64,000 nt of DNA from Bacteroidota bacterium (GCA_016124755.1 WGNA01000014.1:1-64000), one strand, 5' to 3'. Positions 5,690 through 40,514 are shown, counted from the first letter of the stretch. Translations and numbers: made by a program. Notes: a model not told the origin generated them from the letters alone.

Positions 5690-5715
5690 AATAAACCTAA
5701 TATAATAGGTTTATT
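5690..5715. promoter_or_regulatory. Candidate operator between divergent genes
   Basis: A perfect 10-bp inverted repeat (aataaaccta, six bases, taggtttatt) lies in the 119-bp gap between the divergent XRE regulator and the signal-peptide protein. The symmetry and position suit a dimeric HTH repressor. No experimental support. Confidence 0.45.
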
Positions 5716-5757
5716 CAAAACAATTGGTGTTATTTGGTGCATCAAACACGATGTATT

Positions 5758-6225: not shown

Positions 6226-6244
6226 ATACAACAATTTCCAAAGG

Positions 6245-6274
6245 AAAAGGCGGTGCTCTGCACCGCCTTTTTTT
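6245..6274 (+). terminator. Rho-independent terminator
   Basis: The stem aggcggtgc / gcaccgcct closes on a tct loop and is followed by a run of seven or more T. It lies 20 bases after the stop at 6225 and faces the convergent minus-strand gene at 6297. Confidence 0.9.
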
Positions 6275-6296
6275 GTTGGGTTATTTACTTAAGGAA

Positions 6297-6800: not shown

Positions 6801-6803
6801 CTG

Positions 6804-10649: not shown

Positions 10650-12890
10650 ATGATAACAAATATCACATTAAAAAATGTCGCAAGTTTTGGTGAGCATGAA
10701 TCAGGGTTGAAGGATCTTCAATTAATTAACTTCATTTATGGTGCAAATGGAGTAGGTAAAACCACCATTTCTAATTTATTAAAAAATCCGAATTCGGATG
10801 TATTTAGTGATTGTAGTTTTGAATGGAAGGATGGGCAATCTCAGGATATACTTGTATATAACAAATCTTTTAGGGAAAACAATTTTGGTGGAGACGAAAT
10901 TGATGGAGTTTTCACTCTGGGTCAGGCAACTAAAGAAAATTTGGCTAACATCGACGACTTAAGGGCTAAAATTACTACTTCAGAAGATGACTTATTGGGG
11001 TTTAAAAAATCGATACAAACAATCCGAGATAAACAAGAAACAAATAAAAACCAAACACGTGATTTATGCTGGCCGATGTATAAGAAGCATAGTAGGAATT
11101 TCGATCAAGCTTTTGTAGGTTTTAAAAGAAAAGATCCCTTTTTTGAGAAATTAATCTTAGAATCAAAAAACATAGTTGATAATACTATTGAATTCACAGA
11201 CCTTCTTGAAAGAGCACGACTTCTTTTTGAAAGAAAGCCTGAAAAAGAACCTTTAATTGAAATTCCGTATCTGGCAATTGAAGCTTTAGAGATAGAGTTA
11301 AATAGTCTTTGGCAAAAAATAATTGTAGGTAAAAAGGATATTGGAATAGGCGATCTAATAGGAAGATTGCAAATGAGTGACTGGGTTTTCCAAGGTGTAA
11401 GGTTTATTCAAACCGAAGACGCAACATGTCCTTTCTGTCAAAACGAGACAATAACACAAGACCTTCGTTCTCAGTTTGATGATTATTTTGATGAGACTTT
11501 TTTAAGGGATACTAAAGAATTATCTAGTCTTCAAGAAGATTATTCAACGTTTTTTGATAATATCGTTATTAGTTTTGAACAGGTTTTAAACGAGCAAAAA
11601 AGTTCTTCAAAATCTAAGCTCGATATAGATACTTATACATCTAAATTGGATGTATTAAAAGCGAATATTAATTCCAATAAGGAAAAGATTGCAGAGAAGT
11701 TAAAGGAACCCAGTAGAAAAATTGAACTAACAAGTAATAAGCAGGTAATTGACGAAATCACCAAATCGTTGTCTATAGCAAATGAAAATATTCAAAAAAA
11801 TAACGAATTAGTTGATAATTATCATTCCGAATATTCTAGATTAATTTCAGATGTGTGGAAGTATATAGGATCTGAAAATAAAGTGATACTTGATAATTAT
11901 TTATCAAGAGTTGATGGATTTAAAACAGGAATTAACAACTTGGAGTTAAAAATCACTAAGAAGCAAGAAGATATTAGAAACTTAAAGGATCTTCTGAGGG
12001 AGGACAGTGAAAATATAACTAGCGTACAGCCATCAATTGACGCTATAAATTCAACTCTTAAGGCTTTTGGTTTTACTAGTTTTAAGATTGTTACTTCGGG
12101 TCAAAATGAAAACAAGTATCAGATACAAAGAGAAAATGGAGATCTAGTACGGGAAACTCTGAGTGAAGGAGAAATCACATTTATAACATTCTTGTATTAT
12201 TATCAACTTGCCATAGGTGGTTCTACATTTGATACAGTGATTAACGATAGAATTCTGGTAATAGATGACCCGATATCCAGTCTTGATAGTAATATATTGT
12301 TTGTGATAAGTACTTTAATTAAGGAATTGCTGAGAGAAGCTAGAATTGGAGGTGCTATCAAACAAGTCATTGTCTTAACACATAATGTTTATTTCCATAA
12401 GGAGGTTTCATATATTGATGGTAATCCTCGAAGAGATGCACATTTTTGGATAATAAGAAAAAAAGAGGATACATCGTCAATCCAAAGTTTTGGAATGTCA
12501 AATCCAATATCAAACTCATATGAATTATTGTGGTCAGAACTACGAAATAGCGATAAACTATCTAGAATTTCTATCCAGAATACCATGCGCCGAATAATTG
12601 AAAATTACTTTAAGATATTAGGAAGATATGGGGACGATAAATTAATTGATAGTTTTCATGATTTTGAGAGTAAAGCGATTTGTCGATCATTGTTATCATG
12701 GGTGAATGAGGGTTCTCATACTGTACCTGATGATTTATTTATTGAAGACGCCGAAGATATTATCGAAAGATATAGGGGTGTATTTAAAGCAATTTTTGAA
12801 AAAACTAATCACATTGAACATTATCGAATGATGATGAGATCCGATGAGGAAGATTCACTGAATGAAAGAATAATTCAGACTACCGGTTAA
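10650..12890 (+). CDS. AAA_13-type ATPase, RloC/PrrC-like (putative anticodon nuclease)
   Basis: A 746-residue ABC-like ATPase. Walker A is GANGVGKTT near residue 31; long coiled-coil regions follow; a zinc-hook-like CPFC lies at ~260-263; the ABC signature LSEGE is near 505 and Walker B is VIDDPISSLD near 540. The C-terminal part has RRIIE (Arg and Glu four apart, ~644-648) and NEGSH (~689), spaced like the Arg-Glu-His triad of PrrC/RloC anticodon nucleases. Those enzymes cleave tRNA anticodon loops when phage or DNA damage triggers them. The ATPase class is clear; the nuclease assignment is tentative. Lower GC than its neighbours suggests separate acquisition as cargo. Confidence 0.75.
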   Translation: MITNITLKNVASFGEHESGLKDLQLINFIYGANGVGKTTISNLLKNPNSDVFSDCSFEWKDGQSQDILVYNKSFRENNFGGDEIDGVFTLGQATKENLANIDDLRAKITTSEDDLLGFKKSIQTIRDKQETNKNQTRDLCWPMYKKHSRNFDQAFVGFKRKDPFFEKLILESKNIVDNTIEFTDLLERARLLFERKPEKEPLIEIPYLAIEALEIELNSLWQKIIVGKKDIGIGDLIGRLQMSDWVFQGVRFIQTEDATCPFCQNETITQDLRSQFDDYFDETFLRDTKELSSLQEDYSTFFDNIVISFEQVLNEQKSSSKSKLDIDTYTSKLDVLKANINSNKEKIAEKLKEPSRKIELTSNKQVIDEITKSLSIANENIQKNNELVDNYHSEYSRLISDVWKYIGSENKVILDNYLSRVDGFKTGINNLELKITKKQEDIRNLKDLLREDSENITSVQPSIDAINSTLKAFGFTSFKIVTSGQNENKYQIQRENGDLVRETLSEGEITFITFLYYYQLAIGGSTFDTVINDRILVIDDPISSLDSNILFVISTLIKELLREARIGGAIKQVIVLTHNVYFHKEVSYIDGNPRRDAHFWIIRKKEDTSSIQSFGMSNPISNSYELLWSELRNSDKLSRISIQNTMRRIIENYFKILGRYGDDKLIDSFHDFESKAICRSLLSWVNEGSHTVPDDLFIEDAEDIIERYRGVFKAIFEKTNHIEHYRMMMRSDEEDSLNERIIQTTG

Positions 12891-13044: not shown

Positions 13045-14820
13045 CTATGCAGCACGACTCTGGTAATACCTACTACTACAAGTTAAGAGTCGGGTCCTTT
13101 TTATTATTGTTTCAGTGCATCTGGTTCGAACAAGGTTGGCCCCTGTGCACAGGAGCAGAAATAGCTCGGAGTCAGGGCTCAATTGACCTGATTTTAACAG
13201 GGTTATTTCCGGTTCGAACCGTGCTTTTTCAGCCTCAATGGTCTTACAAAGATTAAATATTGCCTGAGCTACGTATGACGGGAAAAAATAAAGGTTTTTG
13301 CCCTGTAATATCTGGTTCGAACCTAAAATGTTGAATGCCTGATTTATGAGCTTTTTGTTACCCGAATTAATGATTTTTTTCATGTTGTTAACGTTTTCTA
13401 GGTGGCTTACAGCCATGCTTATCCAATCAAACTGGCTAGTATCGGTTACCTTGATTTGGGTCTCAAGAAGGCTTACTTCATCTCGAATCGAATCGGTGAA
13501 TCGAATAAAATCCTTGTTGGTTATTTCTCCATCTGCACGCATAAGAAAGAATTGTTCTTCGCGACGCTTCAATTTGGCCAACTTGCACTTTAACGTTTGA
13601 ATTTTGTTTTTCTCTGCTTCCTGGACAACTTCTTGTGTCATTTTCATAGTTTGAATCGCCAGTTCAATTACCGATTTATTTACGGAGTATTGAGTTAAAA
13701 TGGTGGTATACATTTTTTCGAGTTCCTCTTGACGAATGTATTTCTGATTGCATTTTCCTTTGCGTTTGGTACATCGATAATAGGTAATATCGATTCGAGT
13801 GGGATTTTTCATCCGGTTAATTCGGGTGGAACATTTTGGGCATTTATCTGTGTTTTTAGAAGAGAACTTATTTCGACAATGGGTGCATCGAATTTGCTGT
13901 TTTCGCTCGGCTGTCACCTGGCATCCGCAACAACCGCAGGTAATTAAACCGGTGAATGCAAACTCATACTGTTTTTCACGGGTACTGGGTTTGTCATTAG
14001 AAATAACCGCGTTAAAATGGTTGAAATCGTCTTCGCTTACTGCCGGTTTGTGTTTTCCTTTATACTTTATTTTTTGCCCATTTTCATCATTCCAAAAGAA
14101 ATAACCACAGTAAAACGGATGACTGAAAATTTGATAATAGGTGCATTTTTTATAAGGCCTGCCTAATGGATCTCTCAGACCTATTTTGTCACCAATCCGT
14201 TTTAATTCTGAAATATTATAGGTGCCACTTAATGCGGATTTCCAAAGCTTTTGAATGATGGCAAAACGTTCCGGATCACACAATATCTCATCTTCACCCA
14301 GACGAAATTTGGGATTATGCATGTATCCGACAGGTAATTGGGGTGTTGGATACCATCCCCGCTTAGCTTTGGCATTGGTTCCTCTTCTAATATCAATGCT
14401 TAAATCTTTAACATATTGATTCGCCATTCCGAATTCCACCTGCATCATTAACACATTGTCCGTTGGTTTATAATCCCTGCCATGGCATTGAATGGTTTTA
14501 ATGATATTGTTCTGAAGCATCCAGGAAATTTGCCCACCGTCTATGGGATTACGCGCTAAACGGTTGAGTTTCCAACACAAAACACCCTCTGCCCGTCCAT
14601 CGTGAAAAAAATCCAACAATTTGGAAAACCCGGGCCTTCCCGGGGCTTTGGCGGACTGACTTTCTGTGATGACTTCCACCACGTTAAGGTTAAAAGATTT
14701 GGCAAGATCGGTTAGCACTTGAATCTGGTCATCAATCGAGGCCAATTGTCGATCTTCAGATTCTGAGGACTTGCGGGCATAAATTACATAGCGAATGGAT
14801 TTTGGTTGTTGTGTTTTCAT
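13045..14820 (-). CDS. Large serine recombinase
   Basis: About 591 residues from the ATG at 14820 (MKTQQPKSIRYVIYARKSSESEDRQ), chosen because it abuts the resolvase fold. N-terminal catalytic domain with YARKSS (Ser nucleophile), CWKLNRLARNPIDGG and VEFGMANQYVKDLS; then a Recombinase domain (PVGYMHNPKF...RFAIIQKLWKSALSG) and zinc ribbons (CGCCGCQVT, CTHCRNKFSSKNTDKCPKC). A coiled coil and C-terminal region follow. This is the large-serine-integrase architecture, which integrates or excises DNA between attP and attB. Interleaved inverted repeats lie just upstream (14834-14925). Confidence 0.88.
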   Translation of the reverse strand: MKTQQPKSIRYVIYARKSSESEDRQLASIDDQIQVLTDLAKSFNLNVVEVITESQSAKAPGRPGFSKLLDFFHDGRAEGVLCWKLNRLARNPIDGGQISWMLQNNIIKTIQCHGRDYKPTDNVLMMQVEFGMANQYVKDLSIDIRRGTNAKAKRGWYPTPQLPVGYMHNPKFRLGEDEILCDPERFAIIQKLWKSALSGTYNISELKRIGDKIGLRDPLGRPYKKCTYYQIFSHPFYCGYFFWNDENGQKIKYKGKHKPAVSEDDFNHFNAVISNDKPSTREKQYEFAFTGLITCGCCGCQVTAERKQQIRCTHCRNKFSSKNTDKCPKCSTRINRMKNPTRIDITYYRCTKRKGKCNQKYIRQEELEKMYTTILTQYSVNKSVIELAIQTMKMTQEVVQEAEKNKIQTLKCKLAKLKRREEQFFLMRADGEITNKDFIRFTDSIRDEVSLLETQIKVTDTSQFDWISMAVSHLENVNNMKKIINSGNKKLINQAFNILGSNQILQGKNLYFFPSYVAQAIFNLCKTIEAEKARFEPEITLLKSGQLSPDSELFLLLCTGANLVRTRCTETIIKRTRLLTCSSRYYQSRAA

Positions 14821-14833
14821 ATCTGTTATTACA

Positions 14834-14925
14834 CACAAAAGGACAAGGAAAATGAATTAAGATGGTCGTCAAAATTGATTCCTTGCCCTTTTTTGTGCTT
14901 AATTCATAATCCTATTGACGACCAT
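14834..14925. repeat. Three interleaved inverted-repeat pairs upstream of the serine recombinase
   Basis: Three segments A (14834-14850), B (14851-14861) and C (14862-14872) are followed by their inverted complements in the same order: A' (14879-14897), B' (14898-14907) and C' (14914-14925). A/A' differ by a substitution and a 2-base length difference; B/B' and C/C' are perfect or nearly so. The recombinase start is 13 bp away. They could be an operator, an att core or a folded RNA leader. Confidence 0.6.
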
Positions 14926-17108: not shown

Positions 17109-17135
17109 ACCGCAGGTTCAACCTGCGGTTTTTTT
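17109..17135 (+). terminator. Plus-strand terminator inside the 3' end of the NYN gene
   Basis: Stem accgcaggtt / aacctgcggt followed by seven T. It faces the plus direction although no plus-strand gene precedes it after 16836, and it overlaps the last codons of the convergent NYN gene. Its T-run implies a short plus-strand transcript in 16840-17109, possibly a small RNA tied to the candidate origin. Confidence 0.75.
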
Positions 17136-21790: not shown

Positions 21791-23230
21791 TCAATTCGCT
21801 TCTGGGTTCTTTTTGATTTGCTTCATAAGCCCATTCATCCTCTTTATTTCATCCTCTATTTTGTTTCTGTGATAAACAATAATATTTTGATCTTCGGTAG
21901 TAATTTTCCGGGTCATCCGATCAATTAAGATATTAATACACTCTTGTAAAAATGTCTTCTCTTCAATTGCCATATGAGACAATTTGCATGATTTATAGAT
22001 ATACATCCTTTTGGAAAGGTATGCTAACGCATTATCTTGAGAGCTATCTTGTGATGAACGTGTCTCTCTAGTTTTGCAAAGGGACAAGGAGAAGATCATA
22101 TCGAAATTGAACACATAATGGGCCAATAGATACAATCTTCTTTTGCTCAAGAGCATCCCCAAATTCTCTGCACACTTTTGATTTATGATTCCTCTTTCCG
22201 GGAAAATTGATTCTTTGGCTCCAATTCTGAAGTCATCAAATAGATGAGATTCAAAGAATTCGTCAATGATTTTCTTATATGAATTAATCAATGGCGAGGA
22301 TGGTATTATGAATGAATCTTGATGCCATTTACTCAGCAAGTCAATAATTATAGGATGTTTGGAGGTTATGAGATGCTTTTTTACGGAGTTGGCTAAATGT
22401 TCTTGTCCGAATATCTCCTCGAACAATTCAATTAGGTTTAATCCATATTCTTTTCTTGTAAATGTTTGTGTCAGACGTGCGTTATTGGACAGGAATGGTA
22501 TGTGTTGATATCCAGCCCCTTTTTTTATATGGTCAGATAATATTCTTGAACCATACTCATCCATCCAGGCTTTATATATGCGAAGCAACAACAATTGAAT
22601 CTTGCTTTCATTCAATGGTGTTTTTCTTCCCAGTAAAATATAAACATTGCCAAGAGGGACACATTTATTTTTATTGCGGTAAAACGTAATGGGTCTTAAA
22701 GTAATATAAGCATAAGGTAGTGATGTAAACCACTTTTTCGATCGAAATGCAGTAACATATTTAGATAAAAAGCTCTTAAATTCATCCTCGCTCCAGAAAC
22801 CAGAAAAATCATACACATATTCATCCGCAATTGGTTTGTGCATCTGAAGAACGGAGAAATTTGAGAAAGTTCGATAGTAATCATCTTTTTCATCTACCTC
22901 ATGCTTGATATAAACTAGTGGGAAGACTCTGTTCAGGTACCAGTTATAATACTGTGATGGTCCTGAATCTTTAGATTGTTTTACTTCTTCAATTAAATTC
23001 TCATAATCAGGGTGCACCTCTTTGTCAATAGTTTGTTCTGATAATTTGCCATAGTAAAAGGCATTCCCAATACTTTCAACCTGAGTGCTTATGGAAACAA
23101 TTTCAAGAATGCATAGTAAATGGTCAAGATCCTCTTCAAATTGTTCACGCATAATTTTATGAATAACCTCACGGAAGGATGTTGTAGACGGCCCCGTATT
23201 CAATTCGTTGAACTCAAAATCAAACTGCAT
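21791..23230 (-). CDS. Unknown protein, last gene of the transporter-FolE operon
   Basis: About 479 residues from the ATG at 23230 (MQFDFEFNELNTGPSTTSF), which follows the FolE stop directly; the frame is open 16 codons further upstream. No signal peptide, membrane segment or P-loop. The sequence is rich in aromatic residues (YYNWYLNRVFPLVYIKHE; DFSGFWSEDEFKSFLSKY) and has a helical C-terminal tail. I do not recognise a family. Its fixed place in a four-gene overlapping operon makes a shared function with the transporter, methyltransferase and FolE likely. Confidence 0.65.
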   Translation of the reverse strand: MQFDFEFNELNTGPSTTSFREVIHKIMREQFEEDLDHLLCILEIVSISTQVESIGNAFYYGKLSEQTIDKEVHPDYENLIEEVKQSKDSGPSQYYNWYLNRVFPLVYIKHEVDEKDDYYRTFSNFSVLQMHKPIADEYVYDFSGFWSEDEFKSFLSKYVTAFRSKKWFTSLPYAYITLRPITFYRNKNKCVPLGNVYILLGRKTPLNESKIQLLLLRIYKAWMDEYGSRILSDHIKKGAGYQHIPFLSNNARLTQTFTRKEYGLNLIELFEEIFGQEHLANSVKKHLITSKHPIIIDLLSKWHQDSFIIPSSPLINSYKKIIDEFFESHLFDDFRIGAKESIFPERGIINQKCAENLGMLLSKRRLYLLAHYVFNFDMIFSLSLCKTRETRSSQDSSQDNALAYLSKRMYIYKSCKLSHMAIEEKTFLQECINILIDRMTRKITTEDQNIIVYHRNKIEDEIKRMNGLMKQIKKNPEAN

Positions 23231-23241
23231 GTCAACAAAAA

Positions 23242-23757
23242 TTATAAAGTTAATAATGAACCTGCGGAATAAACGCAAACAGTTTCCGATAGGTCATCTT
23301 GAGGGCCTCTGGAACAAACACATAAGTGAGTTGCACGTGTCACAACCCGGCATCCCTTTGCCTTCAGAATATTCATAATATCATCACAAATGTCTTTGGT
23401 CATTATTTCCTGAATTTGAAGCCGAGGACCATGAACATCTTTTACTAATCTAACAAGTTTTCCAAGTCCCGTTATGATTTCATTTGGCTGATATTCAATA
23501 CTACAGGTCCCTAAAAATGGTAGGAAATGGTGCTCGCACATACTGTAGAAATGTATTTTTTCCATCTTTATAGTACCTTGATAATTTTTAACATGTACAA
23601 CATCATTTAACACTTCTTGCGCATTTTTTTGATAGCCAGAAAAGAGTTCGGCATAGGCTCTGGTTATTCTTTCACTTGACTTCAACAAGCGTTCGGTAAC
23701 CATCGGGTGATCGCAAAGCTTGATGAGACTTTGGACATTATTAGCAGTTTTTTTCAT
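23242..23757 (-). CDS. folE: GTP cyclohydrolase I
   Basis: About 171 residues from ATG 23757 (MKKTANN). The zinc and active-site motif MCEHHFLPFLGTCSIEY, then ITGLGKLVRLV, RLQIQEIMT and ATHLCVCSRGPQ (second zinc Cys and RG) match FolE closely. The N-terminal extension of typical FolE is shortened, but the catalytic core is complete. It converts GTP to 7,8-dihydroneopterin triphosphate, the entry point to folate and to 7-deazaguanines (queuosine precursors). It overlaps the methyltransferase by 17 bp. The transporter partner points to 7-deazaguanine chemistry. Confidence 0.88.
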   Translation of the reverse strand: MKKTANNVQSLIKLCDHPMVTERLLKSSERITRAYAELFSGYQKNAQEVLNDVVHVKNYQGTIKMEKIHFYSMCEHHFLPFLGTCSIEYQPNEIITGLGKLVRLVKDVHGPRLQIQEIMTKDICDDIMNILKAKGCRVVTRATHLCVCSRGPQDDLSETVCVYSAGSLLTL

Positions 23758-24418
23758 AAATATCAATACTTTGTTTAAAGTTTATTGTTGGATCTGTAAG
23801 GTTTTGTTTCAACCAGTTAACTAATAAGTCTAGATCGTCTTCAACTGGAATCAACATCATGTATCGGATTTGTTCAGCGAGTTGTGAAAATTCTTTACAA
23901 ACCAATTGGGTGTCAAAAGAAAGCTGAGATATTAGAGCATAATTTGGAATGTCTTTTTTTAACGGTTCTTCTGGATGTGCATCTGGATACTTTTTCTTAA
24001 CCCATCTCACTAACTTACCCAAAAAATCTTGATTTTCATTTACGATAATGATTATATATCTCGGGTTTAAAAGCTGTAAACGGAGGGTTAATTTTGTAAG
24101 GTTATGATCAATAAACTGAAGAGTGTGTGAAACAAAAATGGTGCTAACATCTTCGGCATAGAATTTATAAAAATCACATTGAATATATTGATGCTTGTCA
24201 TGGTAAACCGAACCCTCTTTTTCGATTGGGTTGGTATCAATTAAATATGCCTTTTTGTTTTTCCAGCAAGCATAGGCAATGTCTCCCATTCCGCACCCAA
24301 CATCCAAGATGGACTCCAAAAAGTAGTTCTGTAAATTGGAATTGATAAGATGTATAATAATTTGATTCTCTTCGCAATACTCATTTTTGAAGAGTTTAAC
24401 CTGTTCGAGTGTTATCAT
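23741..24418 (-). CDS. Class I SAM-dependent methyltransferase
   Basis: A 225-residue protein with AdoMet motif I SILDVGCGMGDIAYACW (~37-52), acidic residue in AYLIDTNP, and the strand IFVSHTLQFIDH. Substrate unknown. Its start overlaps the transporter stop by one base (TAATG) and its end overlaps FolE, so the genes are co-translated. It may methylate a 7-deazaguanine-derived or nucleotide substrate; this is inference from context. Confidence 0.75.
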   Translation of the reverse strand: MITLEQVKLFKNEYCEENQIIIHLINSNLQNYFLESILDVGCGMGDIAYACWKNKKAYLIDTNPIEKEGSVYHDKHQYIQCDFYKFYAEDVSTIFVSHTLQFIDHNLTKLTLRLQLLNPRYIIIIVNENQDFLGKLVRWVKKKYPDAHPEEPLKKDIPNYALISQLSFDTQLVCKEFSQLAEQIRYMMLIPVEDDLDLLVNWLKQNLTDPTINFKQSIDIYEKNC

Positions 24419-25086
24419 TAGTCTACTTTGAATGGGTTGAAATTGGTTTCAATATCATAGTAATCCTCATTTTCTATTTTTTTGAGTTTGGTTACAACAA
24501 CCACGCTTACGGGTAATGCAAAAACTTCCCAGAGTACTTTAAAAGTCCAGGCTGCAATAAATACATGAATTAATGAAGACAGCTCTATGGTTCCGATAAA
24601 TGCAACGCATATGAACACAGCGGTGTCCACCATTTGACCAAACAGGGTGGATAGTACAAATCGAATAGGCATTGCTTTACCACTTTGTCGTATTTTTAAT
24701 TTTGCCATCGTATAAGAATTAACAAATTCACCACAGACAAAAGCTAATATTGATGCAGCAGCAATTCTGTACACCTTGCCTAAAATAATTTCGAATTCGG
24801 ATTGATGATTCCATATGGGGGCAGGTTTAAGAAATTTAGCTAACTCCAGAGAAACAACTAAAATGAGCAATGAAAAAAATCCAGCCCAAATCGCCTTTCT
24901 GCTGTAACGATATCCATACACCTCTGTAAATAGATCCCCAAAAACATATACGATAGGAAACAAAATAATTCCGGTAGGAAAGATGAATCCAAATAGGGAA
25001 AAGAGCTTGGTGTCCAGAATGTTTGAAATCACCAAACATGCACAAAAAAGCCCGGTGATAGTGGAGAAGTACTTGTATTGCTTCAT
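24418..25086 (-). CDS. Queuosine precursor transporter (YhhQ/QPTR family)
   Basis: A 222-residue integral membrane protein with about six hydrophobic helices. Family marks: LVISNILDTKLFSLFG, LFPIVYVFGDLFTEVYGYRYSRKAIW and the late LFGQMVDTAVFICVAF, all typical of VUT/YhhQ proteins, which import preQ0/preQ1. First gene of the operon; its upstream region has two 14-bp direct repeats spaced 21 bp apart. Finding it with FolE suggests the operon both makes and imports 7-deazaguanine intermediates. Confidence 0.85.
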   Translation of the reverse strand: MKQYKYFSTITGLFCACLVISNILDTKLFSLFGFIFPTGIILFPIVYVFGDLFTEVYGYRYSRKAIWAGFFSLLILVVSLELAKFLKPAPIWNHQSEFEIILGKVYRIAAASILAFVCGEFVNSYTMAKLKIRQSGKAMPIRFVLSTLFGQMVDTAVFICVAFIGTIELSSLIHVFIAAWTFKVLWEVFALPVSVVVVTKLKKIENEDYYDIETNFNPFKVD

Positions 25087-25131: not shown

Positions 25132-25166
25132 TGTTTTGCAAACTGTATAAATTGTTTTGTAAACCG
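25132..25166. promoter_or_regulatory. Paired direct repeats upstream of the transporter operon
   Basis: tgttttgcaaactg and tgttttgtaaaccg differ at two positions and are spaced exactly 21 bp apart, two helical turns, 46 bp upstream of the transporter start. This layout fits a regulator that binds tandem sites, such as the LytTR regulator encoded at 18346. Confidence 0.45.
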
Positions 25167-25337
25167 TTTCATCTGCTCACGTGAATCCAATTGATTCAAG
25201 TCTAAAAGTATAAAAATGATCTATTTCTCACAGGTTTAAATTAAACTGATTTAAACCTGGATAAGATGGGAATAACTGATCTAATGATTCCAGGAGAGGT
25301 TAATCGGACTCTACTCTTGCCCTGTGCAAATGAAAAA

Positions 25338-25355
25338 CCCCGCATCGCTGCGGGG
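25338..25355 (-). terminator. Hairpin with T-run on the minus strand
   Basis: ccccgca / tgcgggg with a four-base loop. T-rich sequence follows on the minus strand only, so it would end a leftward transcript. No leftward gene is recognised to its right, suggesting a short RNA from 25360-25600. Confidence 0.6.
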
Positions 25356-25709
25356 CGTATCATTTACTCAGAATAGGTGAGTAATGACACTGGGTAAAGT
25401 GATGTTAGCCGCAACACTAGACCTACCAGATATCATACATATCTGGCAGAAAATGTCAACTCACCTGTGTATAACTATAAAAACACAGGTCATGCAAAAA
25501 AGTCAAAAACATCTCCCGATTTCACACCTTACCTCTCAGGGGTTAAGAATTCTCAGATCTAAAGGTCGTCTTCATTTCTTTTACGATCCTTCAACCCGGC
25601 GCAATGGCCTCTGGGATCAAAGATTTGAAGATTTCAGCTGGTTTTCCAACCATTATCTCGCATTTGACGCCTTTCTGTCCGCATGACGGGTCGCTCGAGA
25701 AGTTACATA

Positions 25710-25767
25710 TTTTGAAGAAATCCAAACCACGGATTTACATCAATCCGAGGCTTGGATTTCTTCAAAA
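25710..25767. repeat. 58-bp imperfect hairpin (26-bp arms)
   Basis: The arms 25710-25735 and 25742-25767 pair at 24 of 26 positions around a 6-base loop, 35 bp upstream of the membrane-protein start. There is no T-run, so it is not a typical terminator. Candidate relaxase or recombinase recognition structure. Confidence 0.75.
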
Positions 25768-27799: not shown

Positions 27800-28090
27800 A
27801 TGCATCTGATTACACTATCACTTCTGAAAGCGTATCTGAAAAATCTTGGATATCAGGCTACTTATGTTCAACCCGACAAACGCGCCTTTTACAATCCCAG
27901 AACCCGAAAGGAGATTGTCATTCCAACCTCTACCTGTGAGTTATCCATAACAGATTTAGAACAAATCTTTCTGGCTCCGGCGTGTGATCTGCCGGTGGAT
28001 ATGGAGATAAACCGGTTGAAGTTGTATTGCTGCAACATGTTGCTGGGGATGGCATTTGATCCCGAACTCTTTGAGGAAGTAGCGGCATGA
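27800..28090 (+). CDS. Hypothetical protein of the mobilisation operon
   Basis: A 96-residue soluble protein (MHLITLSLLKAYLKNLGYQATYVQP) with a Cys-rich end (LYCCNMLLG). It overlaps the coupling-protein gene by 4 bp, so both are probably translated together. No recognised domain. Confidence 0.55.
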   Translation: MHLITLSLLKAYLKNLGYQATYVQPDKRAFYNPRTRKEIVIPTSTCELSITDLEQIFLAPACDLPVDMEINRLKLYCCNMLLGMAFDPELFEEVAA

Positions 28091-29622
28091 AAAAGCAATA
28101 TTTTCATCGAGCATTTTGGAAGAAATTGAAAACGATTGGTTTTTCGATTTTGATCCATACAACTGATATTCTTGAAAGCATCGGTGATGCTTTAGAACAG
28201 GCGGCTGATACCCTGAAAGAAAAGGATCACCGGTTTAAGGCCCGGTTTGACCAGCCCCAAAAACTGGCGGATCGATCTGGCAAATCGTTTTCTGTTTCGG
28301 GTGACCGCTTTTTATCGCTGGATCGAGCCCGAATGAATACCCTTGTCATTGCCCCATCTGGCTCGGGGAAAACGCAAGTCTGCGTATTCCCAAGTATTTA
28401 TCATCTGGCAATGCAGGGATCCTCAATGGTTGTCAACGATAATTCCGGGGAACTTTCCCGATTTATCCCGTTTCTAAAACGTAAAGGGTATCAGATTTTG
28501 TTGATTGATTTCACCTTTTCGGGAGCTCGGGATTCGGTATTCTTCAACCCACTGGCTCGAATTAAAACCAAAGCTGATGCGGCTAAATGTGCGGGAATAC
28601 TCGTGCGATCAACCATGGGAGGCGAAGGTAAAGATGCCAAGGGGTCTTTTTTTACGACCAAAAGTGAAGAGCTGCTGACCGTATTCATCTACTTTTTGAT
28701 AACCTGTTGCCATCCGATGTACCACAATCTGGCGAATCTTCTGCTGTTATTGGAAGAACTTCAGGCAAACCCGCAGAAGGTAGAGCACTTGCTGTCCAGA
28801 GCTCCGGAAGATCTTTGGCGAACCTACATGAGTTTGCTCGGCAGCAGTGAGAATACCCGAACCAGTATTGTTGCATCAGCCCAGGCGGCAATCAGCTGGA
28901 TTGGAAACGACCCCCAACTTCAATATTTAACGCACACAGACACGTTGAATTTTGATGCGTTGCGCAATGGCAAGACAGCTGTTTTTGTGCGTTTACCGAT
29001 AAAAGACGCCGAATACTATACAGTAGTGGCAGGCCTGTTTTTCAACAACTTGTTTGGTCATTTCTTTCAGGTTATTCCCGAGAAATCCCAACAAGACATC
29101 CACCTGATTCTGGAGGAGTTTTCAACGTTTGCTGCTGCCTTACCGGATTTTTCTAATACGTTAGCCAATAGTCGGAAGTACCGATTACCCATTATGGCAG
29201 TGATTCAATCGGGTCAGCAGTTGGTACAAGCTTACGGGCAGTTTGACGCCAAGACAATCCAGTCCAATTTTAACACCAAAGTGTATTTCTCCGGTCTGAC
29301 CGAAGAGGCTGAACATCTGGAGCGGATACTGGGAAAATACTCCTATAAGGCGGATCCGGATGACAAGCACTTTTCCACCCGGCAACTAATGACCTCAGAT
29401 GAGATTCGTAATATGCCTAAGGATACCGTACTGGTGCTTTCTTCCAGTTTTAATCCTATAAAAATGAAAACAAAACCAGCCTACCGACAGCCCTTGATTA
29501 TGCAGGCCTGGAATACGACAGACGAGGATGGAGAATGTCCAGAGCAGGGATACACACCCATCGATATCCCACTGCTTGATTTATCCGGAAAGGATATTCG
29601 AGGTACTTCCGAAGAACAATAA
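28087..29622 (+). CDS. VirD4/TraG-type coupling protein (T4CP)
   Basis: A 511-residue ATPase. Walker A APSGSGKTQVCVFPS (~90-100) preceded by RMNTLVI; SMVVNDNSGELSRF is the T4CP strand after it; DSVFFNPLARI is the NPL motif; Walker B IHLILEEFSTFAALPDF; then ANSRKYRLPIMAVIQSGQQL and ETEEAEHLERILGKYS-like TraM-recognition part. It lacks a long membrane N-terminus. It feeds relaxase-bound DNA to a secretion channel. With the relaxase at 30.4 kb it forms the mobilisation core. Confidence 0.88.
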   Translation: MKKQYFHRAFWKKLKTIGFSILIHTTDILESIGDALEQAADTLKEKDHRFKARFDQPQKLADRSGKSFSVSGDRFLSLDRARMNTLVIAPSGSGKTQVCVFPSIYHLAMQGSSMVVNDNSGELSRFIPFLKRKGYQILLIDFTFSGARDSVFFNPLARIKTKADAAKCAGILVRSTMGGEGKDAKGSFFTTKSEELLTVFIYFLITCCHPMYHNLANLLLLLEELQANPQKVEHLLSRAPEDLWRTYMSLLGSSENTRTSIVASAQAAISWIGNDPQLQYLTHTDTLNFDALRNGKTAVFVRLPIKDAEYYTVVAGLFFNNLFGHFFQVIPEKSQQDIHLILEEFSTFAAALPDFSNTLANSRKYRLPIMAVIQSGQQLVQAYGQFDAKTIQSNFNTKVYFSGLTEEAEHLERILGKYSYKADPDDKHFSTRQLMTSDEIRNMPKDTVLVLSSSFNPIKMKTKPAYRQPLIMQAWNTTDEDGECPEQGYTPIDIPLLDLSGKDIRGTSEEQ

Positions 29623-29639
29623 CCATGTAACCTATCTAT

Positions 29640-29930
29640 ATGAAACAGTATCAATTTATTAAGAAAAACATTCTGATTAAATCCAGTTCGGAACTGGAAT
29701 TCTACAACCGATTGCGTCAAATTGGACTTCACCCGCATTTTAATGGTTCAGGTCAATCCATTGGTGTCAATGACCATGGGAAGATTCTTAAGTGGAAGGA
29801 TCTGGGGATCACCCCTCGCGATTTTGTATTTCTACAAACCCGGGAACTGGTAACCCGCATCTCACGACTTGAACAAACCCAGGCTATTCGATCAAGAGTG
29901 CCACAAATTGAACAAACCCTCAAACGATAA
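29640..29930 (+). CDS. Hypothetical protein of the mobilisation operon
   Basis: A 96-residue basic protein (MKQYQFIKKNILIKSSSELEFYNRLRQIG). The middle has NDHGKILKWKDLGITPRDF; the tail is helical. It lies between the coupling protein and the RHH-type Mob accessory gene. It may bind DNA or the relaxosome, but no family is recognised. Confidence 0.5.
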   Translation: MKQYQFIKKNILIKSSSELEFYNRLRQIGLHPHFNGSGQSIGVNDHGKILKWKDLGITPRDFVFLQTRELVTRISRLEQTQAIRSRVPQIEQTLKR

Positions 29931-29940
29931 TTAACACAAA

Positions 29941-30381
29941 ATGAAACCAACCGACTTTCCATACAACAGTATTCACGACTATTTGGATCAGATTTTCATC
30001 GATGAGAATCCCGATGCACAAAAAGTAAAAGAAGCCAAACGGGAGTACTGGAAACTGTACAACCGATATTTAAAAAGAGACCAGCGTAGACAAGGGAAAA
30101 CCCTTCACATAAAACTTCCCATAGAGCAATATCAAAAGATTCAGCAAATGGCCCGGAATCAGGGAACAACTGCCAGTTCAATTATTAAGTCCTGGATTGA
30201 TCAACCCGGAACTTCCTATCACCGGATGTCCACTGCTTTGCCCATCGAGATTCAACGAATCTGCTTCGATGTCTTACATACCATGGAAATACGTCCGGTT
30301 GCCCATGTTGATGTACAGAAAAGCGCGTACAACGGACTGTTGGCTATATTAACACTTACCGAACAAATTCAGCAGTCATGA
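29941..30381 (+). CDS. Mob accessory protein, RHH-like
   Basis: A 146-residue protein. The centre, KTLHIKLPIEQYQKIQQMARNQGTTASSIIKSWI, has the beta-strand-helix-helix pattern of ribbon-helix-helix DNA-binding proteins. It overlaps the relaxase by 4 bp. This order (RHH gene then relaxase) is standard for mobilisation pairs, where the small protein binds oriT and helps the relaxase. Confidence 0.75.
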   Translation: MKPTDFPYNSIHDYLDQIFIDENPDAQKVKEAKREYWKLYNRYLKRDQRRQGKTLHIKLPIEQYQKIQQMARNQGTTASSIIKSWIDQPGTSYHRMSTALPIEIQRICFDVLHTMEIRPVAHVDVQKSAYNGLLAILTLTEQIQQS

Positions 30382-31274
30382 TCATTAAATCAAAAGGATA
30401 TCAGCGGTTATCATCCATTAGAAGGGTCATCAGTTATGTGCTTCAGGAAGTAAAAACCAATCAGGCGAATGAAATGCCTCTTTCTCAGAGCTTTCTGTAT
30501 TCCCGTAATCTAATACCGGTTGAAAATCTGGATGAACTGGTAGATCAATTTGAGAAAAATGAGGATAAAAGAATACACAAACGAAACAACAACAATGTTG
30601 TCTATCAGGACATTATATCTTTTCACGCATCGGATCGCTCCAGGCTCGGCGAACATGAACTACGGCTTTTGGCAGTCCGTTACGCGGAATTACGATGTAA
30701 CCAAGCCCTGAGTTTTGCTGTTTGGCACCACGACACCGACCATATTCACTTGCATTTGGTGTCTTCGGGTGTCAACCGGTTTGATGCAAAAGCGGTGCGC
30801 TTAACCAAATCTGGGTTTAATCAACTCAAATTGGAAATGGAGAACTATCAGGATCAAACACTTCGGCTGGTTCATTCTCGGGTTGATCATAGCTACTCGA
30901 CTCAACCTTATGACTTGCAGCAGCACAGAGCGTATGCATCCGGAACGGTGTCCACCAAAATTGAGCTCAGGCGCCAAATAGCAGAACTAGCCGAAAATTG
31001 TCCTTCTCTGGAGAGCTTTCTTCAACGTTGTCAAAAGGCAGATATGTCGGTTTACAATCGAAACCATCGGCCAACCGGGGTGATTCTTAACGGGAGAAAG
31101 TACCGGTTTTCCACTTTAAAAATTGCCTCTCTGGACTTACTGATGAGGCGATCGGTATCATTGGATACGGCACAAATCCGAATGCTTCAGCTCAAAAACC
31201 GCCAGATACAGCAGAGGCAGTATCAACGCCAACTAGAACGAGATACAAAGGGATTCTTAAGGGACTCCCCTTAA
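30378..31274 (+). CDS. Relaxase / mobilisation nuclease
   Basis: A 298-residue protein. The metal-binding triad is in FAVWHHDTDHIHLHLVSSG (HxxxDHxHxH), and the nucleophile Tyr is probably one of those in MIIKSKGYQRLSSIRRVISYV. This is the MobA/MobL-type fold that nicks oriT and stays linked to the 5' end. The C-terminal part is basic with helices (LRRQIAEL; QIQQRQYQRQL). Family members are often longer, with helicase or primase domains; here only the nuclease is present. Confidence 0.85.
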   Translation: MIIKSKGYQRLSSIRRVISYVLQEVKTNQANEMPLSQSFLYSRNLIPVENLDELVDQFEKNEDKRIHKRNNNNVVYQDIISFHASDRSRLGEHELRLLAVRYAELRCNQALSFAVWHHDTDHIHLHLVSSGVNRFDAKAVRLTKSGFNQLKLEMENYQDQTLRLVHSRVDHSYSTQPYDLQQHRAYASGTVSTKIELRRQIAELAENCPSLESFLQRCQKADMSVYNRNHRPTGVILNGRKYRFSTLKIASLDLLMRRSVSLDTAQIRMLQLKNRQIQQRQYQRQLERDTKGFLRDSP

Positions 31275-31324
31275 GCAAGATGGCATTGTGATCGGAGCTT
31301 ATGACGGTCACAATGCAATCTTGC
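31275..31324. repeat. Inverted repeat after the relaxase gene
   Basis: The arms 31275-31293 and 31306-31324 pair at 17 of 19 positions around a 12-base loop, starting one base after the relaxase stop. A smaller cctgc / gcagg stem follows at 31324-31342. Candidate oriT half, attenuator or terminator without a T-run. Confidence 0.6.
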
Positions 31325-31403
31325 CTGCGGCAAAAGGCAGGAGCCCTGCCAGGTAATGCACCATCTATTTTCACACCAGTCAAACCCATAAAAACCAAAC
31401 ATC

Positions 31404-31763
31404 ATGAAACTTATAACAGAGGAACTTAAAGAACAATTCAAACAATGGGGCGATCAATCCCAGATCAAAGATCCCATGATTTTAGCCAAATTTTTCGACC
31501 CTTGCGGGTCGGCCACCTGGTGGATCAGCCAGTATGATCCTCAAACAAATATTGCTTATGGCTATGTAACCGGGCTGGTATGCGATGAGTGGGGAAGTGT
31601 CAGTATCGAGGAACTGGAAGCCATAAAAAGACCCTTTGGCCTGAGGATCGAGCGAGATCTGTACTTTACACCTGGCAGCATATCAAAGGTTTGTCCGGGG
31701 TACCACAAGGAACAGAGCACAGAAGATCGAACCATTGAACGAGATACAGATCTCCAGCAATGA
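31404..31763 (+). CDS. DUF2958-family protein
   Basis: A 119-residue protein with ILAKFFDPCGSATWWISQYD, GYVTGLVCDEWGSVSIEELEAI and RPFGLRIERDLYFTP, the marks of DUF2958, a small family common on plasmids and conjugative elements and of unknown function. ATGA overlap with the following small gene. It supports the mobile origin of the block. Confidence 0.8.
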   Translation: MKLITEELKEQFKQWGDQSQIKDPMILAKFFDPCGSATWWISQYDPQTNIAYGYVTGLVCDEWGSVSIEELEAIKRPFGLRIERDLYFTPGSISKVCPGYHKEQSTEDRTIERDTDLQQ

Positions 31764-31930
31764 AATCCGAAAGGAGCTTTCAGGATCCGTTAACCAGCGA
31801 TGCGTATTCTGAAGAAACATCAGGCCAAATAGAACTCCAATTGTTGGAATTCTCCCGAATCTGCCTGTCGATGCATCAAAATGTCGACCGGGATAAATTG
31901 ACCGGTAAGAATAAACCCGTTAAAATATAA
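31760..31930 (+). CDS. Small hypothetical protein
   Basis: A 56-residue frame (MKSERSFQDPLTSDAYSEET...RDKLTGKNKPVKI) that overlaps the DUF2958 stop by 4 bp and ends 3 bp before the next gene. Coupling at both ends supports it. Function unknown. Confidence 0.5.
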   Translation: MKSERSFQDPLTSDAYSEETSGQIELQLLEFSRICLSMHQNVDRDKLTGKNKPVKI

Positions 31931-31933
31931 ACC

Positions 31934-32602
31934 ATGATAAGCCATAATTTTAATCCGATTCAAACAGATAACCAGGAGCATTTAGCATTTTGGACTTTGA
32001 TTCAGGATGCACAGTCTCACAATCTGAAAGGCAGGGATTTCATGCCTTATTTTGAGCGATCCGTGCACAGTAAACAACCCAATGAGCTTATTGAACTGAT
32101 GAAATCCTATCTGATGCTCCATAAGGAGCTACAACATCCAGCTCTTCCAGCAGCCGATTGGCTGATCAATGGTTATACCAGCGATGATGGACTAACCGAT
32201 TTTAAAAACTGGATTATTTCCAAAGGCAGGGAAGTGTATACCTCAGTTCAAAAGGATCCGGACAACCTTATTTCGTATGTTTCGGACTCTGATGCCAGAA
32301 TGGAAGTCCTTCCGTACATCATTTCTGAGCGTTACGAAGTTCTAACCGGAAAATCAATCTACCAGGCCATTCCTCAAGTACAATCACAATCACGTATAAA
32401 ACTCAAGTTTATTGATGAACTAACGGCCAAAGAACACTGTCCGAACCTGTTTGCCCATCGAGCTTCCGAGTTGCAAAAGCGCAGGGCTATGGCGCAAGAG
32501 GTAAGTCGAGCTTTCAGTCTTGAAGGATTGAGTCCGGAGGGCAGAAAGATCAATGGTTCAACTCGGAAAATAAGCCAATCTCAAGATGAAATGGACTGGT
32601 AG
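31934..32602 (+). CDS. DUF4240-like hypothetical protein
   Basis: A 222-residue soluble protein. The N-terminal third (FWTLIQDAQSHN...HSKQPNELIELMKSYL) and WLINGYTSDDGLTDFKNWIISKG follow the wording of DUF4240 proteins; the C-terminal part is basic. Function unknown. Last gene of the mobilisation-side operon before the palindrome at 32613. Confidence 0.55.
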   Translation: MISHNFNPIQTDNQEHLAFWTLIQDAQSHNLKGRDFMPYFERSVHSKQPNELIELMKSYLMLHKELQHPALPAADWLINGYTSDDGLTDFKNWIISKGREVYTSVQKDPDNLISYVSDSDARMEVLPYIISERYEVLTGKSIYQAIPQVQSQSRIKLKFIDELTAKEHCPNLFAHRASELQKRRAMAQEVSRAFSLEGLSPEGRKINGSTRKISQSQDEMDW

Positions 32603-32612
32603 CTTTTTGCTT

Positions 32613-32638
32613 AAATCGACCAGGTGACTGGTCGATTT
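32613..32638. repeat. 26-bp palindrome between operon end and serine recombinase
   Basis: Perfect arms aaatcgaccag / ctggtcgattt with loop gtga, 11 bp after the DUF4240-like stop and 81 bp before the recombinase start. No T-run follows, so an operator or recombination half-site is as likely as a terminator. Confidence 0.65.
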
Positions 32639-32718
32639 CAAGATGAAGATAATGTAGCTTTTATCCTTTCAACATCTGTCAAATCAGAGCTTAAATTCCA
32701 AATTTAAGCCACTTAATA

Positions 32719-34242
32719 ATGGAAATTCCACAGGATATCGATTTGGTTGAACTGGCTGCTTTTGCACGAGGGAAAAAGCAGGAAATCCGAAAGGACTCTG
32801 CAAAAATGGCTCTGGCATATACCCGTGTTTCTTCCAAAGAGCAGGAAATGAATTTGTCATTGGATGTCCAGATGCAGAGCATTTTGAACTATGCCGAACG
32901 CCGGAAAATCCATATTGCTGGATTCTTTGGCGGGGCAGAGTCAGCCAAGGATGATGAACGAGAAGAATTCAAACGCATGCTGGAATTTGCTCGGCGAAAC
33001 AAAAAGAAGATCGGGTATATACTGGTTCATTCACTTGATCGGTTCTCGCGCAGCGGTCCAGCTTCTATGACCTTGATTGAATCTCTTCAAAAGGATGGTA
33101 TTCAGGTTATTTCAGTCACTCAACCCACAGACCTTTCTCCTTCTGGAGAATTGATGCAGCAGATACTGCTTTCCTTTAGCAATTTTGATAATAAATTACG
33201 TAGAACCAAGACGATTGATGGGATGAAGGAACGTTTAAAGCGTGGTTTATTTGTTGGAATCGCGCCCATTGGTTATGACTACGACCGGTCACAAAGACAC
33301 AAACCCCTTGTCCAAACTCAAGCAGCTCCCTTGATCAAAAAAGCATTTGAATTAAAGGTACAGGGTATGAGTAATGCGGATATTGTCAAAAAGCTGCGTC
33401 CACAAGGGCTGGATCTCCACCAAAAGTCGATGTCGAAGCTTTTTGCCCAACCGTTGTATGCTGGATTCATCTCTAACAAACTTCTGGAAGGAGAGCTGGT
33501 AAAAGGGAGTCATCCACCGATAATATCCAAGGATTTATTTCTGGCAGCCAATGCCGACCGGCGCCAATTTGAATCCCGCATTTCTCAAAGCGAACTTTCC
33601 GACCTCGCTCCTCTCCGTGGCTTTATTTGGTGTTCTGCCTGTATGTCTCATCATTTGACAGCTTATGAAGTAAAATGCCGGGGGCTATATTACTACAAGT
33701 GCTCCATAAAAAACTGCAAACACAACATCCGCCTTGAACAGATGCACGAGCTTTTTTACAACATGCTTTCTTCTCTGGTAATTGATGTAAAACACATTCC
33801 AACACTCCAGAAAAAGCTTCGGGATACATACAACGATAAATACCGGGATCATGCTGCCACCCTTAGTCGATTGAAAGGAACCATTAGTAATCAACAGGGC
33901 AAACTTTATGAGCTGGAAGAGCGGTATGCCTTTGGAAAGATCACTCAGGAAATCTTTGATCGAGTCTCCGAAACCTATCGTCAGAAGCTCATTCAAGCTG
34001 AGTCAGAATTATTCAAACTCAAAACTCCGTTTGAAGGAAATTTTGAAGACTATCTGGATTTTAGTCTGGAACTTTCCACCAACTTGCACCAGATGTGGAG
34101 GCAGGGTGATACGTTTGAGAAAGTGAGGTTACAGAATTTGGTGTTTCCAAAGGGGATAATATATGATAAGGCCAAGAATACGTGTGCTCCGTTGACCACT
34201 AATATGATTTTGAGTGGAAAACAAGATAACCTATTGGTGTAA
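32719..34242 (+). CDS. Serine recombinase
   Basis: A 507-residue protein. Resolvase domain: LAYTRVSSKEQEMNLSLDVQ (Ser nucleophile), VHSLDRFSRSGPAS, LLSFSNFDNKLRRTKT. Then a Recombinase domain (RGLFVGIAPIGYDYD...IKKAFELKVQGMSNADIVKKL) and a zinc-ribbon (CSACMSHHL...YYKCSIKNCK). A coiled coil follows (LKGTISNQQGKLYELEERY). It probably integrates or excises the mobile element; it is distinct in sequence from the recombinase at 13.0 kb, so two elements may be nested here. Confidence 0.88.
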   Translation: MEIPQDIDLVELAAFARGKKQEIRKDSAKMALAYTRVSSKEQEMNLSLDVQMQSILNYAERRKIHIAGFFGGAESAKDDEREEFKRMLEFARRNKKKIGYILVHSLDRFSRSGPASMTLIESLQKDGIQVISVTQPTDLSPSGELMQQILLSFSNFDNKLRRTKTIDGMKERLKRGLFVGIAPIGYDYDRSQRHKPLVQTQAAPLIKKAFELKVQGMSNADIVKKLRPQGLDLHQKSMSKLFAQPLYAGFISNKLLEGELVKGSHPPIISKDLFLAANADRRQFESRISQSELSDLAPLRGFIWCSACMSHHLTAYEVKCRGLYYYKCSIKNCKHNIRLEQMHELFYNMLSSLVIDVKHIPTLQKKLRDTYNDKYRDHAATLSRLKGTISNQQGKLYELEERYAFGKITQEIFDRVSETYRQKLIQAESELFKLKTPFEGNFEDYLDFSLELSTNLHQMWRQGDTFEKVRLQNLVFPKGIIYDKAKNTCAPLTTNMILSGKQDNLLV

Positions 34243-34533: not shown

Positions 34534-35445
34534 TTAGAGTGGCTCAATTGATTTAAACGCTTCGAGTATTATTTTTCTAACTTTCATATCTAAAAATGGT
34601 AGAACAATTTTTTCAAAATTAGCTGAGGAACGTACAATATATTTCCTCAAATAGGTGTGAGTTTTATCTTCACTTAAGCTATATTCTTTTAATAATTGTA
34701 AATGGTGAATAGTTTTTTCTACTAATTGATCTTCGCTCAGTGCACCACTTTCAAGTTGAATAAAAAGTGACTGAATAGCCACTTTAAAATCATCAATTAC
34801 TCTCTCAACTCGATCAAGCTTAATTTCTTTCCTATTCAACAAGCAGATTTGAATGGTTTGATTTCCTCTACCATTTACATCATTTCCCAATATTCTTATT
34901 CCTTCGCCTCTGGGATCAATTTTGAAGTCAAAGTAATCTTCCGGTCGATCTACTTCAGGATGCAGCAGAAACGGAATTTCATTTAACAGAGGGGCATTAT
35001 TTGCCCTACATTGAGTTACGTCTAAATTCCCGTCCGGAAGCATCGTTGGAGCATTAACCCTGACCCCAAGAATGGGAAATTGGTTATGTTTAGCTCCCTC
35101 TCGATTACAGGTAATGCATGACGGAATTAAATTGGTCCATTCATAACATAGCCAATAGTATCCTTCATGATCTTTGTCTTCTGCAACTCCTTTTTTTGGT
35201 CGATAATGCTCAATGTCTGCCTTACAAAGGCGTTCACAATACGCACATTTATTTTTATATGAAATGGCTAATTGATCCTCAACTCGTGATCTTTTACCAT
35301 CTGGAGTATCATAACCCTCTCGGTATATAGCATCTGTAATAAGATTTTTATTTACTGTTTGAATAATTGTAAGTAAAGCCCGATACGTTTCATCAGATGC
35401 TAATCGAGGAGTACGTTCATTATCAGCTTTTATAACAAACCTCAT
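34534..35445 (-). CDS. PtuB-like HNH endonuclease (Septu-type)
   Basis: A 303-residue protein. HNH-type centre: YKNKCAYCERLCKADIEHYRPK (~67-88) and YYWLCYEWTNLIPSCITCNREG (~97-120), containing the CxxC pairs and the His of EHYRPK. This matches the HNH family (TIGR02646-like) found beside AAA ATPases in Septu and some retron systems. The helical C-terminal half has no other domain. Its start overlaps the PtuA-like stop by 4 bp, as in Septu pairs, where the ATPase controls the nuclease that attacks phage DNA or host nucleic acid. Confidence 0.85.
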   Translation of the reverse strand: MRFVIKADNERTPRLASDETYRALLTIIQTVNKNLITDAIYREGYDTPDGKRSRVEDQLAISYKNKCAYCERLCKADIEHYRPKKGVAEDKDHEGYYWLCYEWTNLIPSCITCNREGAKHNQFPILGVRVNAPTMLPDGNLDVTQCRANNAPLLNEIPFLLHPEVDRPEDYFDFKIDPRGEGIRILGNDVNGRGNQTIQICLLNRKEIKLDRVERVIDDFKVAIQSLFIQLESGALSEDQLVEKTIHHLQLLKEYSLSEDKTHTYLRKYIVRSSANFEKIVLPFLDMKVRKIILEAFKSIEPL

Positions 35446-37187: not shown

Positions 37188-37196
37188 ACGCCCATG

Positions 37197-40513: not shown

Positions 40514-40514
40514 T

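What the first reader, a model, noticed from the sequence alone, without database searches (positions are those of the whole stretch)
21791..25086. Operon of queuosine-precursor transporter, methyltransferase, FolE and an unknown 479-residue protein
The four genes overlap or abut (TAATG, 17 bp, 11-bp gap). FolE and the YhhQ-type transporter both lead to 7-deazaguanines, yet QueD, QueE, QueC, QueF and TGT are all missing. The fixed pairing with a methyltransferase and an unrecognised protein on a mobile block suggests a specialised use of a deazaguanine or pterin compound, perhaps in nucleic-acid modification, signalling or defence (queuosine-type enzymes also occur in QatABCD and some CBASS loci).
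Basis: partly seen in the sequence, partly recalled or inferred. Interest (0 to 1): 0.65.

Follow-up and report, generated by a model that had tools for sequence, protein, structure and literature searches.

The report
Mobile pterin/deazaguanine operon with orphan protein
A mobile defence island of an unnamed Bacteroidota-type bacterium carries a tight four-gene operon (a queuosine-precursor-type transporter, a methyltransferase, a fast-evolving extra GTP cyclohydrolase and a protein with no known relatives) that probably makes, methylates and moves a small pterin-like molecule, although nothing yet shows what that molecule is for.

Summary
In detail: four overlapping or abutting genes on the minus strand encode a queuosine-precursor transporter (QPTR), a weak class-I methyltransferase, FolE, and a 479-residue protein without detectable relatives. 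The window holds no recognisable QueC, QueD, QueE, QueF or TGT.

The host genome has TGT, QueA, a second FolE beside a PTPS, and a second divergent transporter, but no QueC. It therefore cannot make preQ0 and is presumably a precursor salvager, so FolE here cannot feed a deazaguanine pathway.

The transporter falls in a family often linked to QueF/QueC (26 of 100 loci). Its small supported clade also holds the only other FolE-linked copy found: a Methylobacterium nodulans plasmid cluster folE-folM-QPTR-O-methyltransferase, a pterin-type gene set. That favours a methylated pterin over a deazaguanine.

The operon lies between two serine recombinases, in an island with a Septu pair, a HerA/methyltransferase cluster and a PDC-S06 defence candidate. 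A second Bacteroidota genome has an [unknown-QPTR-methyltransferase] operon beside Pbe defence genes.

The "fixed pairing" is not supported: no second copy of the operon was found, so co-occurrence cannot be tested. Verdict: a real and unusual operon; pterin reading most likely (about 0.35); a defence role is possible but unproven.

The parts
24418..25086 (-). QPTR/VUT family transporter (222 aa), first gene of the operon
   Evidence: Pfam Vut_1 1.7e-41; TIGR00697 111 bits over cut-off 51; 44-45% identical to the M. nodulans plasmid copy; falls in a supported 5-member clade with it
23741..24418 (-). class I SAM-dependent methyltransferase (225 aa), divergent
   Evidence: sub-threshold Methyltransf_31/25/11/23 hits, motif I ILDVGCGMG read directly; relatives found only at E ~5e-4, all generic methyltransferases
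23242..23757 (-). FolE (GTP cyclohydrolase I), 171 aa, second FolE of this genome, fast-evolving, lacking the C-terminal helix region
   Evidence: GTP_cyclohydroI 3.7e-45; CEHH and HxC zinc/catalytic residues kept, S135G and R153I in E. coli numbering, short C-terminus; end branch 8.1 in the FolE tree; housekeeping FolE at G000:C23:70166
21791..23230 (-). orphan protein of 479 aa, last gene of the operon, function unknown
   Evidence: no family, no homolog; coding by codon usage; single-sequence fold not usable, pLDDT 35
25337..25356 (-). terminator-like hairpin upstream of the operon
   Evidence: 8-bp stem with 6 GC pairs and a T-rich tail
25132..25164 (-). two direct repeats GTTTRCAAAACA 21 bp apart, about 45 bp upstream of the transporter start: candidate operator
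   Evidence: inference only
25231..25259 (.). perfect inverted repeat, arms CAGGTTTAAAT / ATTTAAACCTG with 7 nt between
   Evidence: role unknown
34534..41648 (-). context: Septu-type PtuB (34534-35445) and PtuA (35442-37187), HerA-type ATPase (37197-39329), unknown (39326-40513), DNA methyltransferase (40515-41648)
   Evidence: PADLOC PtuB 1.2e-114, PtuA 6.7e-249, HerA 2.1e-20, MTase_II 4.6e-22
10650..12890 (+). context: PDC-S06 candidate phage-defence protein
   Evidence: PADLOC PDC-S06 1.8e-251
13045..14838 (-). context: serine recombinase bounding the region on one side
   Evidence: Pfam Resolvase/Recombinase
28087..34242 (+). context: coupling protein (28087-29622), relaxase (30378-31274), serine recombinase (32719-34242)
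   Evidence: Pfam T4SS-DNA_transf, Relaxase, Resolvase

Best explanation
The operon is an accessory small-molecule module carried by a mobile defence island. [quoted passage not shown] Host enzymes dephosphorylate or reduce it. The linked SAM-methyltransferase methylates the resulting pterin, and the QPTR-family transporter carries it, or a look-alike bicyclic guanine analogue, across the inner membrane. The 479-aa protein uses or senses the product. In logic it would resemble a pterin signal or cofactor pathway such as Agrobacterium PruA/PruR, where a 2'-O-methylated monapterin is proposed. Shown: operon structure, FolE and QPTR family membership, host gene content, context. Inferred: every catalytic step, the identity of the molecule and the role of the orphan.
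For: The host has no QueC; the only hit is TilS, so FolE output can become a pterin but not preQ0. The host already has a housekeeping FolE next to a PTPS-type gene, so a second FolE implies a dedicated use. FolE keeps its zinc and catalytic residues. The only other FolE-linked transporter found is on M. nodulans pMNOD02, in a cluster folE - folM - QPTR - O-methyltransferase; its SDR is FolM by sequence (PDB 5tgd, 2.9e-76, with pteridine reductases following) and its methyltransferase is Methyltransf_3. The window and M. nodulans transporters lie in one supported clade of five among 100 (95/81). Literature: Agrobacterium makes a pterin proposed to be 2'-O-methylmonapterin, dependent on PruA, and no pterin efflux system is known (PMC13259868).
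Against: The transporter belongs to a family linked to QueF/QueC (26 of 100 loci), and its characterised member carries preQ0 (PMC5372724); no member is known to move pterins. No pteridine reductase was found among the window genes scanned. The methyltransferases of the window and M. nodulans are not specifically related (Z=0.56). The three other members of the five-member transporter clade have no FolE nearby. Only one copy of this operon is known.
Confidence: 0.35

Rival explanations
1. Ordinary cargo: a spare queuosine-precursor importer and a spare FolE that back up Q salvage and folate/pterin supply, co-transcribed on a mobile element with an unrelated methyltransferase and an orphan gene. 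There is no joint pathway.
For: The host has TGT and QueA but no QueC, so it is presumably a Q-precursor salvager for which an extra importer is useful. The transporter family is QueF/QueC-linked. The unknown protein has no relatives, and no second example of the operon was found.
Against: The four genes overlap or nearly so. FolE is strongly diverged, with a long branch and changed residues near the GTP triphosphate site, which is unlike a simple backup copy. FolE and a transporter of the same clade recur with a methyltransferase and FolM in M. nodulans.
Confidence: 0.3
2. Deazaguanine module for defence or nucleic-acid/protein modification: the transporter imports preQ0 or preQ1, the methyltransferase modifies it or its product, and the 479-aa protein attaches or senses it, with the diverged FolE altered to act on a related substrate.
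For: The island holds Septu, HerA/methyltransferase and PDC-S06 genes. A second Bacteroidota genome (L105) has an overlapping [unknown 370 aa - QPTR - methyltransferase] operon beside PbeA/PbeC-like defence genes. Deazaguanine chemistry is used in type IV CBASS and a QueC-family protein acts in qatABCD (PMC13279940, abstract), and YhhQ occurs in about 9% of dpd islands (PMC11888242).
Against: No QueC-like or TGT-like gene recognised in the operon. FolE keeps canonical cyclohydrolase residues. The unknown proteins of the two loci are unrelated (Z=-0.5), and the two methyltransferases are related only at superfamily level (Z=4.7).
Confidence: 0.22

Closest known systems
Methylobacterium nodulans pMNOD02 cluster folE-folM-QPTR-O-methyltransferase (NC_011887.1, about 146689-149586)
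   Same: FolE, a transporter of the same supported clade (45% identical) and a SAM-methyltransferase side by side on a plasmid
   Different: Has a FolM pteridine reductase; its methyltransferase is a COMT-like family unrelated to the window's; no counterpart of the 479-aa protein; no annotated function for the cluster
Pterin signalling PruA/PruR/DcpA (Agrobacterium; PMC13259868)
   Same: FolE-derived pterin, apparently methylated, acting as a signal across the inner membrane
   Different: No PruA/FolM-type reductase found among the window genes scanned; PruR and DcpA not specifically searched; mechanism here only inferred
YhhQ/COG1738 queuosine-precursor transporters (PMC5372724)
   Same: The transporter passes TIGR00697 and its relatives often sit beside QueF/QueC
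   Different: Here it is linked to FolE and a methyltransferase, not to any dedicated Q gene
dpd islands, qatABCD and type IV CBASS
   Same: Mobile/defence setting; a deazaguanine-type transporter can occur in dpd islands
   Different: No QueC-like gene and no recognisable TGT-like gene in the operon or window; DpdA not searched for separately
[unknown 370 aa - QPTR - methyltransferase] operon of another Bacteroidota genome (L105:4975-7550)
   Same: Overlapping QPTR and methyltransferase genes with an orphan protein beside defence genes
   Different: No FolE; orphan protein unrelated; transporter in another branch of the tree

Membership tests
Queuosine precursor transporter (TIGR00697/COG1738) | passes the curated model score | tested here: met
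   111.1 bits against cut-off 50.95
Queuosine precursor transporter (TIGR00697/COG1738) | genomic link to Q genes at this locus | tested here: not met
   no dedicated Q gene in the window, although 26 of 100 relatives have QueF or QueC within 4 kb
Queuosine precursor transporter (TIGR00697/COG1738) | carries preQ0/preQ1/queuine | not testable with these tools
   needs an uptake assay
GTP cyclohydrolase I (FolE) | zinc ligands and catalytic histidines (C110, H112, H113, H179, C181 in E. coli numbering) | tested here: met
   CEHH and HLC aligned with solved FolE and relatives
GTP cyclohydrolase I (FolE) | curated NCBIfam equivalog score (TIGR00063, 181.6 bits) | tested here: not met
   129.3 bits: a divergent FolE; the Pfam cut-off is passed
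De novo queuosine/preQ0 pathway in this genome | QueC present | tested here: not met
   only hit is TilS; genome scored 100% complete
De novo queuosine/preQ0 pathway in this genome | TGT and QueA present (salvage end of the pathway) | tested here: met
Dpd DNA-deazaguanine system | TGT-like DpdA | tested here: inconclusive
   no window ORF matches the host TGT and PHROGs/PADLOC give none for the operon proteins; DpdA itself was not used as a query
qatABCD / type IV CBASS | QueC-family protein | tested here: not met
   no QueC-like ORF in the window
PruA-type pterin signalling | FolM/PTR1-type pteridine reductase in the locus | tested here: not met
   none among the window genes scanned; present in the M. 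nodulans relative
PruA-type pterin signalling | PruR/DcpA homologs | not tested

The most novel reading that the evidence does not exclude
A new kind of mobile defence module in which a dedicated guanine-derived small molecule (a methylated pterin, or an imported deazaguanine) is made or imported, methylated, and used by a locus-specific orphan effector. The window operon and the unknown-QPTR-methyltransferase operon beside Pbe genes in a second Bacteroidota genome would be two versions with different orphan effectors.
Probability: 0.13. Interest if true: 0.85.

Novelty: new variant of a known kind. Interest (0 to 1): 0.45.

Why it matters
Bacterial pterin signals and their transporters are poorly known; a 2026 review states that no pterin efflux system has been identified (PMC13259868). 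A compact operon joining FolE, a methyltransferase and a QPTR-family transporter in a host that cannot make preQ0 is a clean place to test whether some QPTR transporters move pterins. If the defence setting is functional, it would add a second guanine-derived metabolite route, next to deazaguanylation, to bacterial immunity.

Tried and rejected
- Unknown protein as DpdA/TGT or another known family: no hit in Pfam, NCBIfam, PADLOC, PHROGs or PDB; segments tried separately.
- Its weak phylum hits and one class hit (E=6.7e-5, five in-frame stops) were rejected as chance.
- Structure predictions of the orphan and the methyltransferase from single sequences were unusable (pLDDT 35 and 42), so no fold search was run.
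- preQ1 or folate riboswitch upstream: none.
- Homology between the unknown proteins of the window, M. nodulans and L105: none.
- QueC in the host: the hit is TilS.
- Methyltransferase beside the 80 closest transporters: none found by motif or by similarity.
- A FolE-dedicated transporter subfamily: rejected; three of the five clade members have no FolE nearby.

Full report
The observation. On the minus strand the order is transporter (24418-25086), methyltransferase (23741-24418), FolE (23242-23757) and a 479-aa protein (21791-23230), with a TAATG overlap, a 17-bp overlap and an 11-bp gap. Codon usage supports all four as coding. FolE and transporter are secure family members. The methyltransferase is recognised only weakly (E about 0.006), but its SAM motif ILDVGCGMG is plain. 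The last protein matches no library used. Reference TGT, QueA, QueC, QueD, QueE and QueF hit nothing in the window.

The host. The window is one 64-kb part of a 75-kb contig in a 4.05-Mb genome. The genome also has a housekeeping FolE (C23:70166) next to a PTPS-type gene, a second, very divergent transporter (C25:160475), TGT and QueA with a paralog. It has no QueC: the single hit above the cut-off is tRNA(Ile)-lysidine synthase (identified from its sequence). Such a cell cannot make preQ0 and presumably salvages Q precursors (inference; QueF was not searched). The extra FolE cannot be a step toward preQ0 there. This is the strongest single argument against the plain deazaguanine reading.

FolE. 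The window FolE keeps the CEHH and HxC zinc and catalytic residues. It has Ser135 changed to Gly and Arg153 to Ile (E. coli numbering), and it lacks the C-terminal helix region. That Ser135 lies near the GTP triphosphate is from general knowledge of the enzyme. In a tree of FolE proteins it has by far the longest branch (8.1). It is therefore a fast-evolving paralog, probably still a cyclohydrolase; its place in the tree is not reliable.

The transporter. Only 12 of 394 other Bacteroidota genomes sampled carry a close relative. Around those, and around the 80 closest relatives in GTDB genomes, QueF or QueC is a frequent neighbour: 26 of 100 rows of the tree. FolE is a neighbour in one case apart from the window: the M. 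nodulans plasmid cluster folE - folM - QPTR - O-methyltransferase, where the SDR is FolM by sequence and the methyltransferase is Methyltransf_3. The window and M. nodulans transporters fall together in a supported clade of five (95/81). The other three members have ordinary neighbours and no FolE, so this is not a dedicated FolE-linked subfamily. FolE followed by FolM is pterin chemistry, which tips the balance toward a pterin for this pair.

The orphan. A tblastn-type search found no relative in the whole order (108 genomes), 395 genomes across the phylum, 197 of the class, all plasmids and all phages, and pattern scans of IMG/VR and GTDB contigs found none. Weak hits have in-frame stops or cover short segments and were treated as chance. 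A single-sequence structure prediction failed.

Setting. The operon lies between two serine recombinases (13045-14838 and 32719-34242) beside a mobilisation block. Nearby are a Septu PtuA/PtuB pair, a HerA-type ATPase with a DNA methyltransferase, and a PDC-S06 defence candidate, so this is a defence island by content. One of the 12 Bacteroidota relatives, in a different family (L105), has an overlapping [370-aa unknown - QPTR - methyltransferase] operon converging on PbeA and PbeC-like genes. The unknown proteins of the two loci are unrelated, and the methyltransferases only distantly so. This is a lead for a defence role, not evidence of one.

Regulation. There is no riboswitch. A terminator-like hairpin separates the operon from upstream DNA. 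Two GTTTRCAAAACA repeats 21 bp apart and a perfect 11-bp inverted repeat lie in the 250 bp before the first start codon, which suggests its own promoter and a regulator (inference).

Judgement. Most likely the operon makes, methylates and moves a pterin-type molecule that the orphan uses (0.35). An unrelated assortment of salvage and pterin genes (0.30) and a deazaguanine-based defence or modification module (0.22) remain open. The literature search found YhhQ in about 9% of dpd islands (PMC11888242), QueC-family proteins in qatABCD and type IV CBASS (PMC13279940, PMC13329287), and pterin signalling with a proposed 2'-O-methyl pterin and no known pterin exporter (PMC13259868). It returned no description of an operon like this one.

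Noticed in passing
window 34534-41648: Septu-type PtuA/PtuB pair with a HerA-type ATPase, a 395-aa unknown and a DNA methyltransferase in one co-directional run; possibly an extended Septu or a composite restriction system.
   Followed up: partly
L105:1836-12904 (Bacteroidota genome G403): PbeA and PbeC-like defence genes next to an overlapping unknown-QPTR-methyltransferase operon; a PPDK_N domain protein and an isochorismatase lie further upstream.
   Followed up: partly
L086 (Piscirickettsia salmonis plasmid), 4057-7099: Two VUT-family transporters, a class II aldolase and a 'GTP cyclohydrolase I family' protein; a QueF/QueC-type match lies within 4 kb of the transporter: plasmid-borne precursor salvage genes.
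   Followed up: no
window 25710-25767: Near-perfect 26-bp inverted repeat (92%) with a 6-nt loop, inside an ORF of the mobilisation block.
   Followed up: no
window 18346-21011: TPR histidine kinase (HisKA_2 type) with a LytTR response regulator, downstream of the operon and on the same strand.
   Followed up: no
G000:C7:25240-26406 (L212): A second QueA-family gene (334 bits, 418-aa open frame) besides the ordinary QueA in a genome without QueC.
   Followed up: no
window 17118-18263: NYN-domain (LabA-like) putative nuclease in the same island.
   Followed up: no
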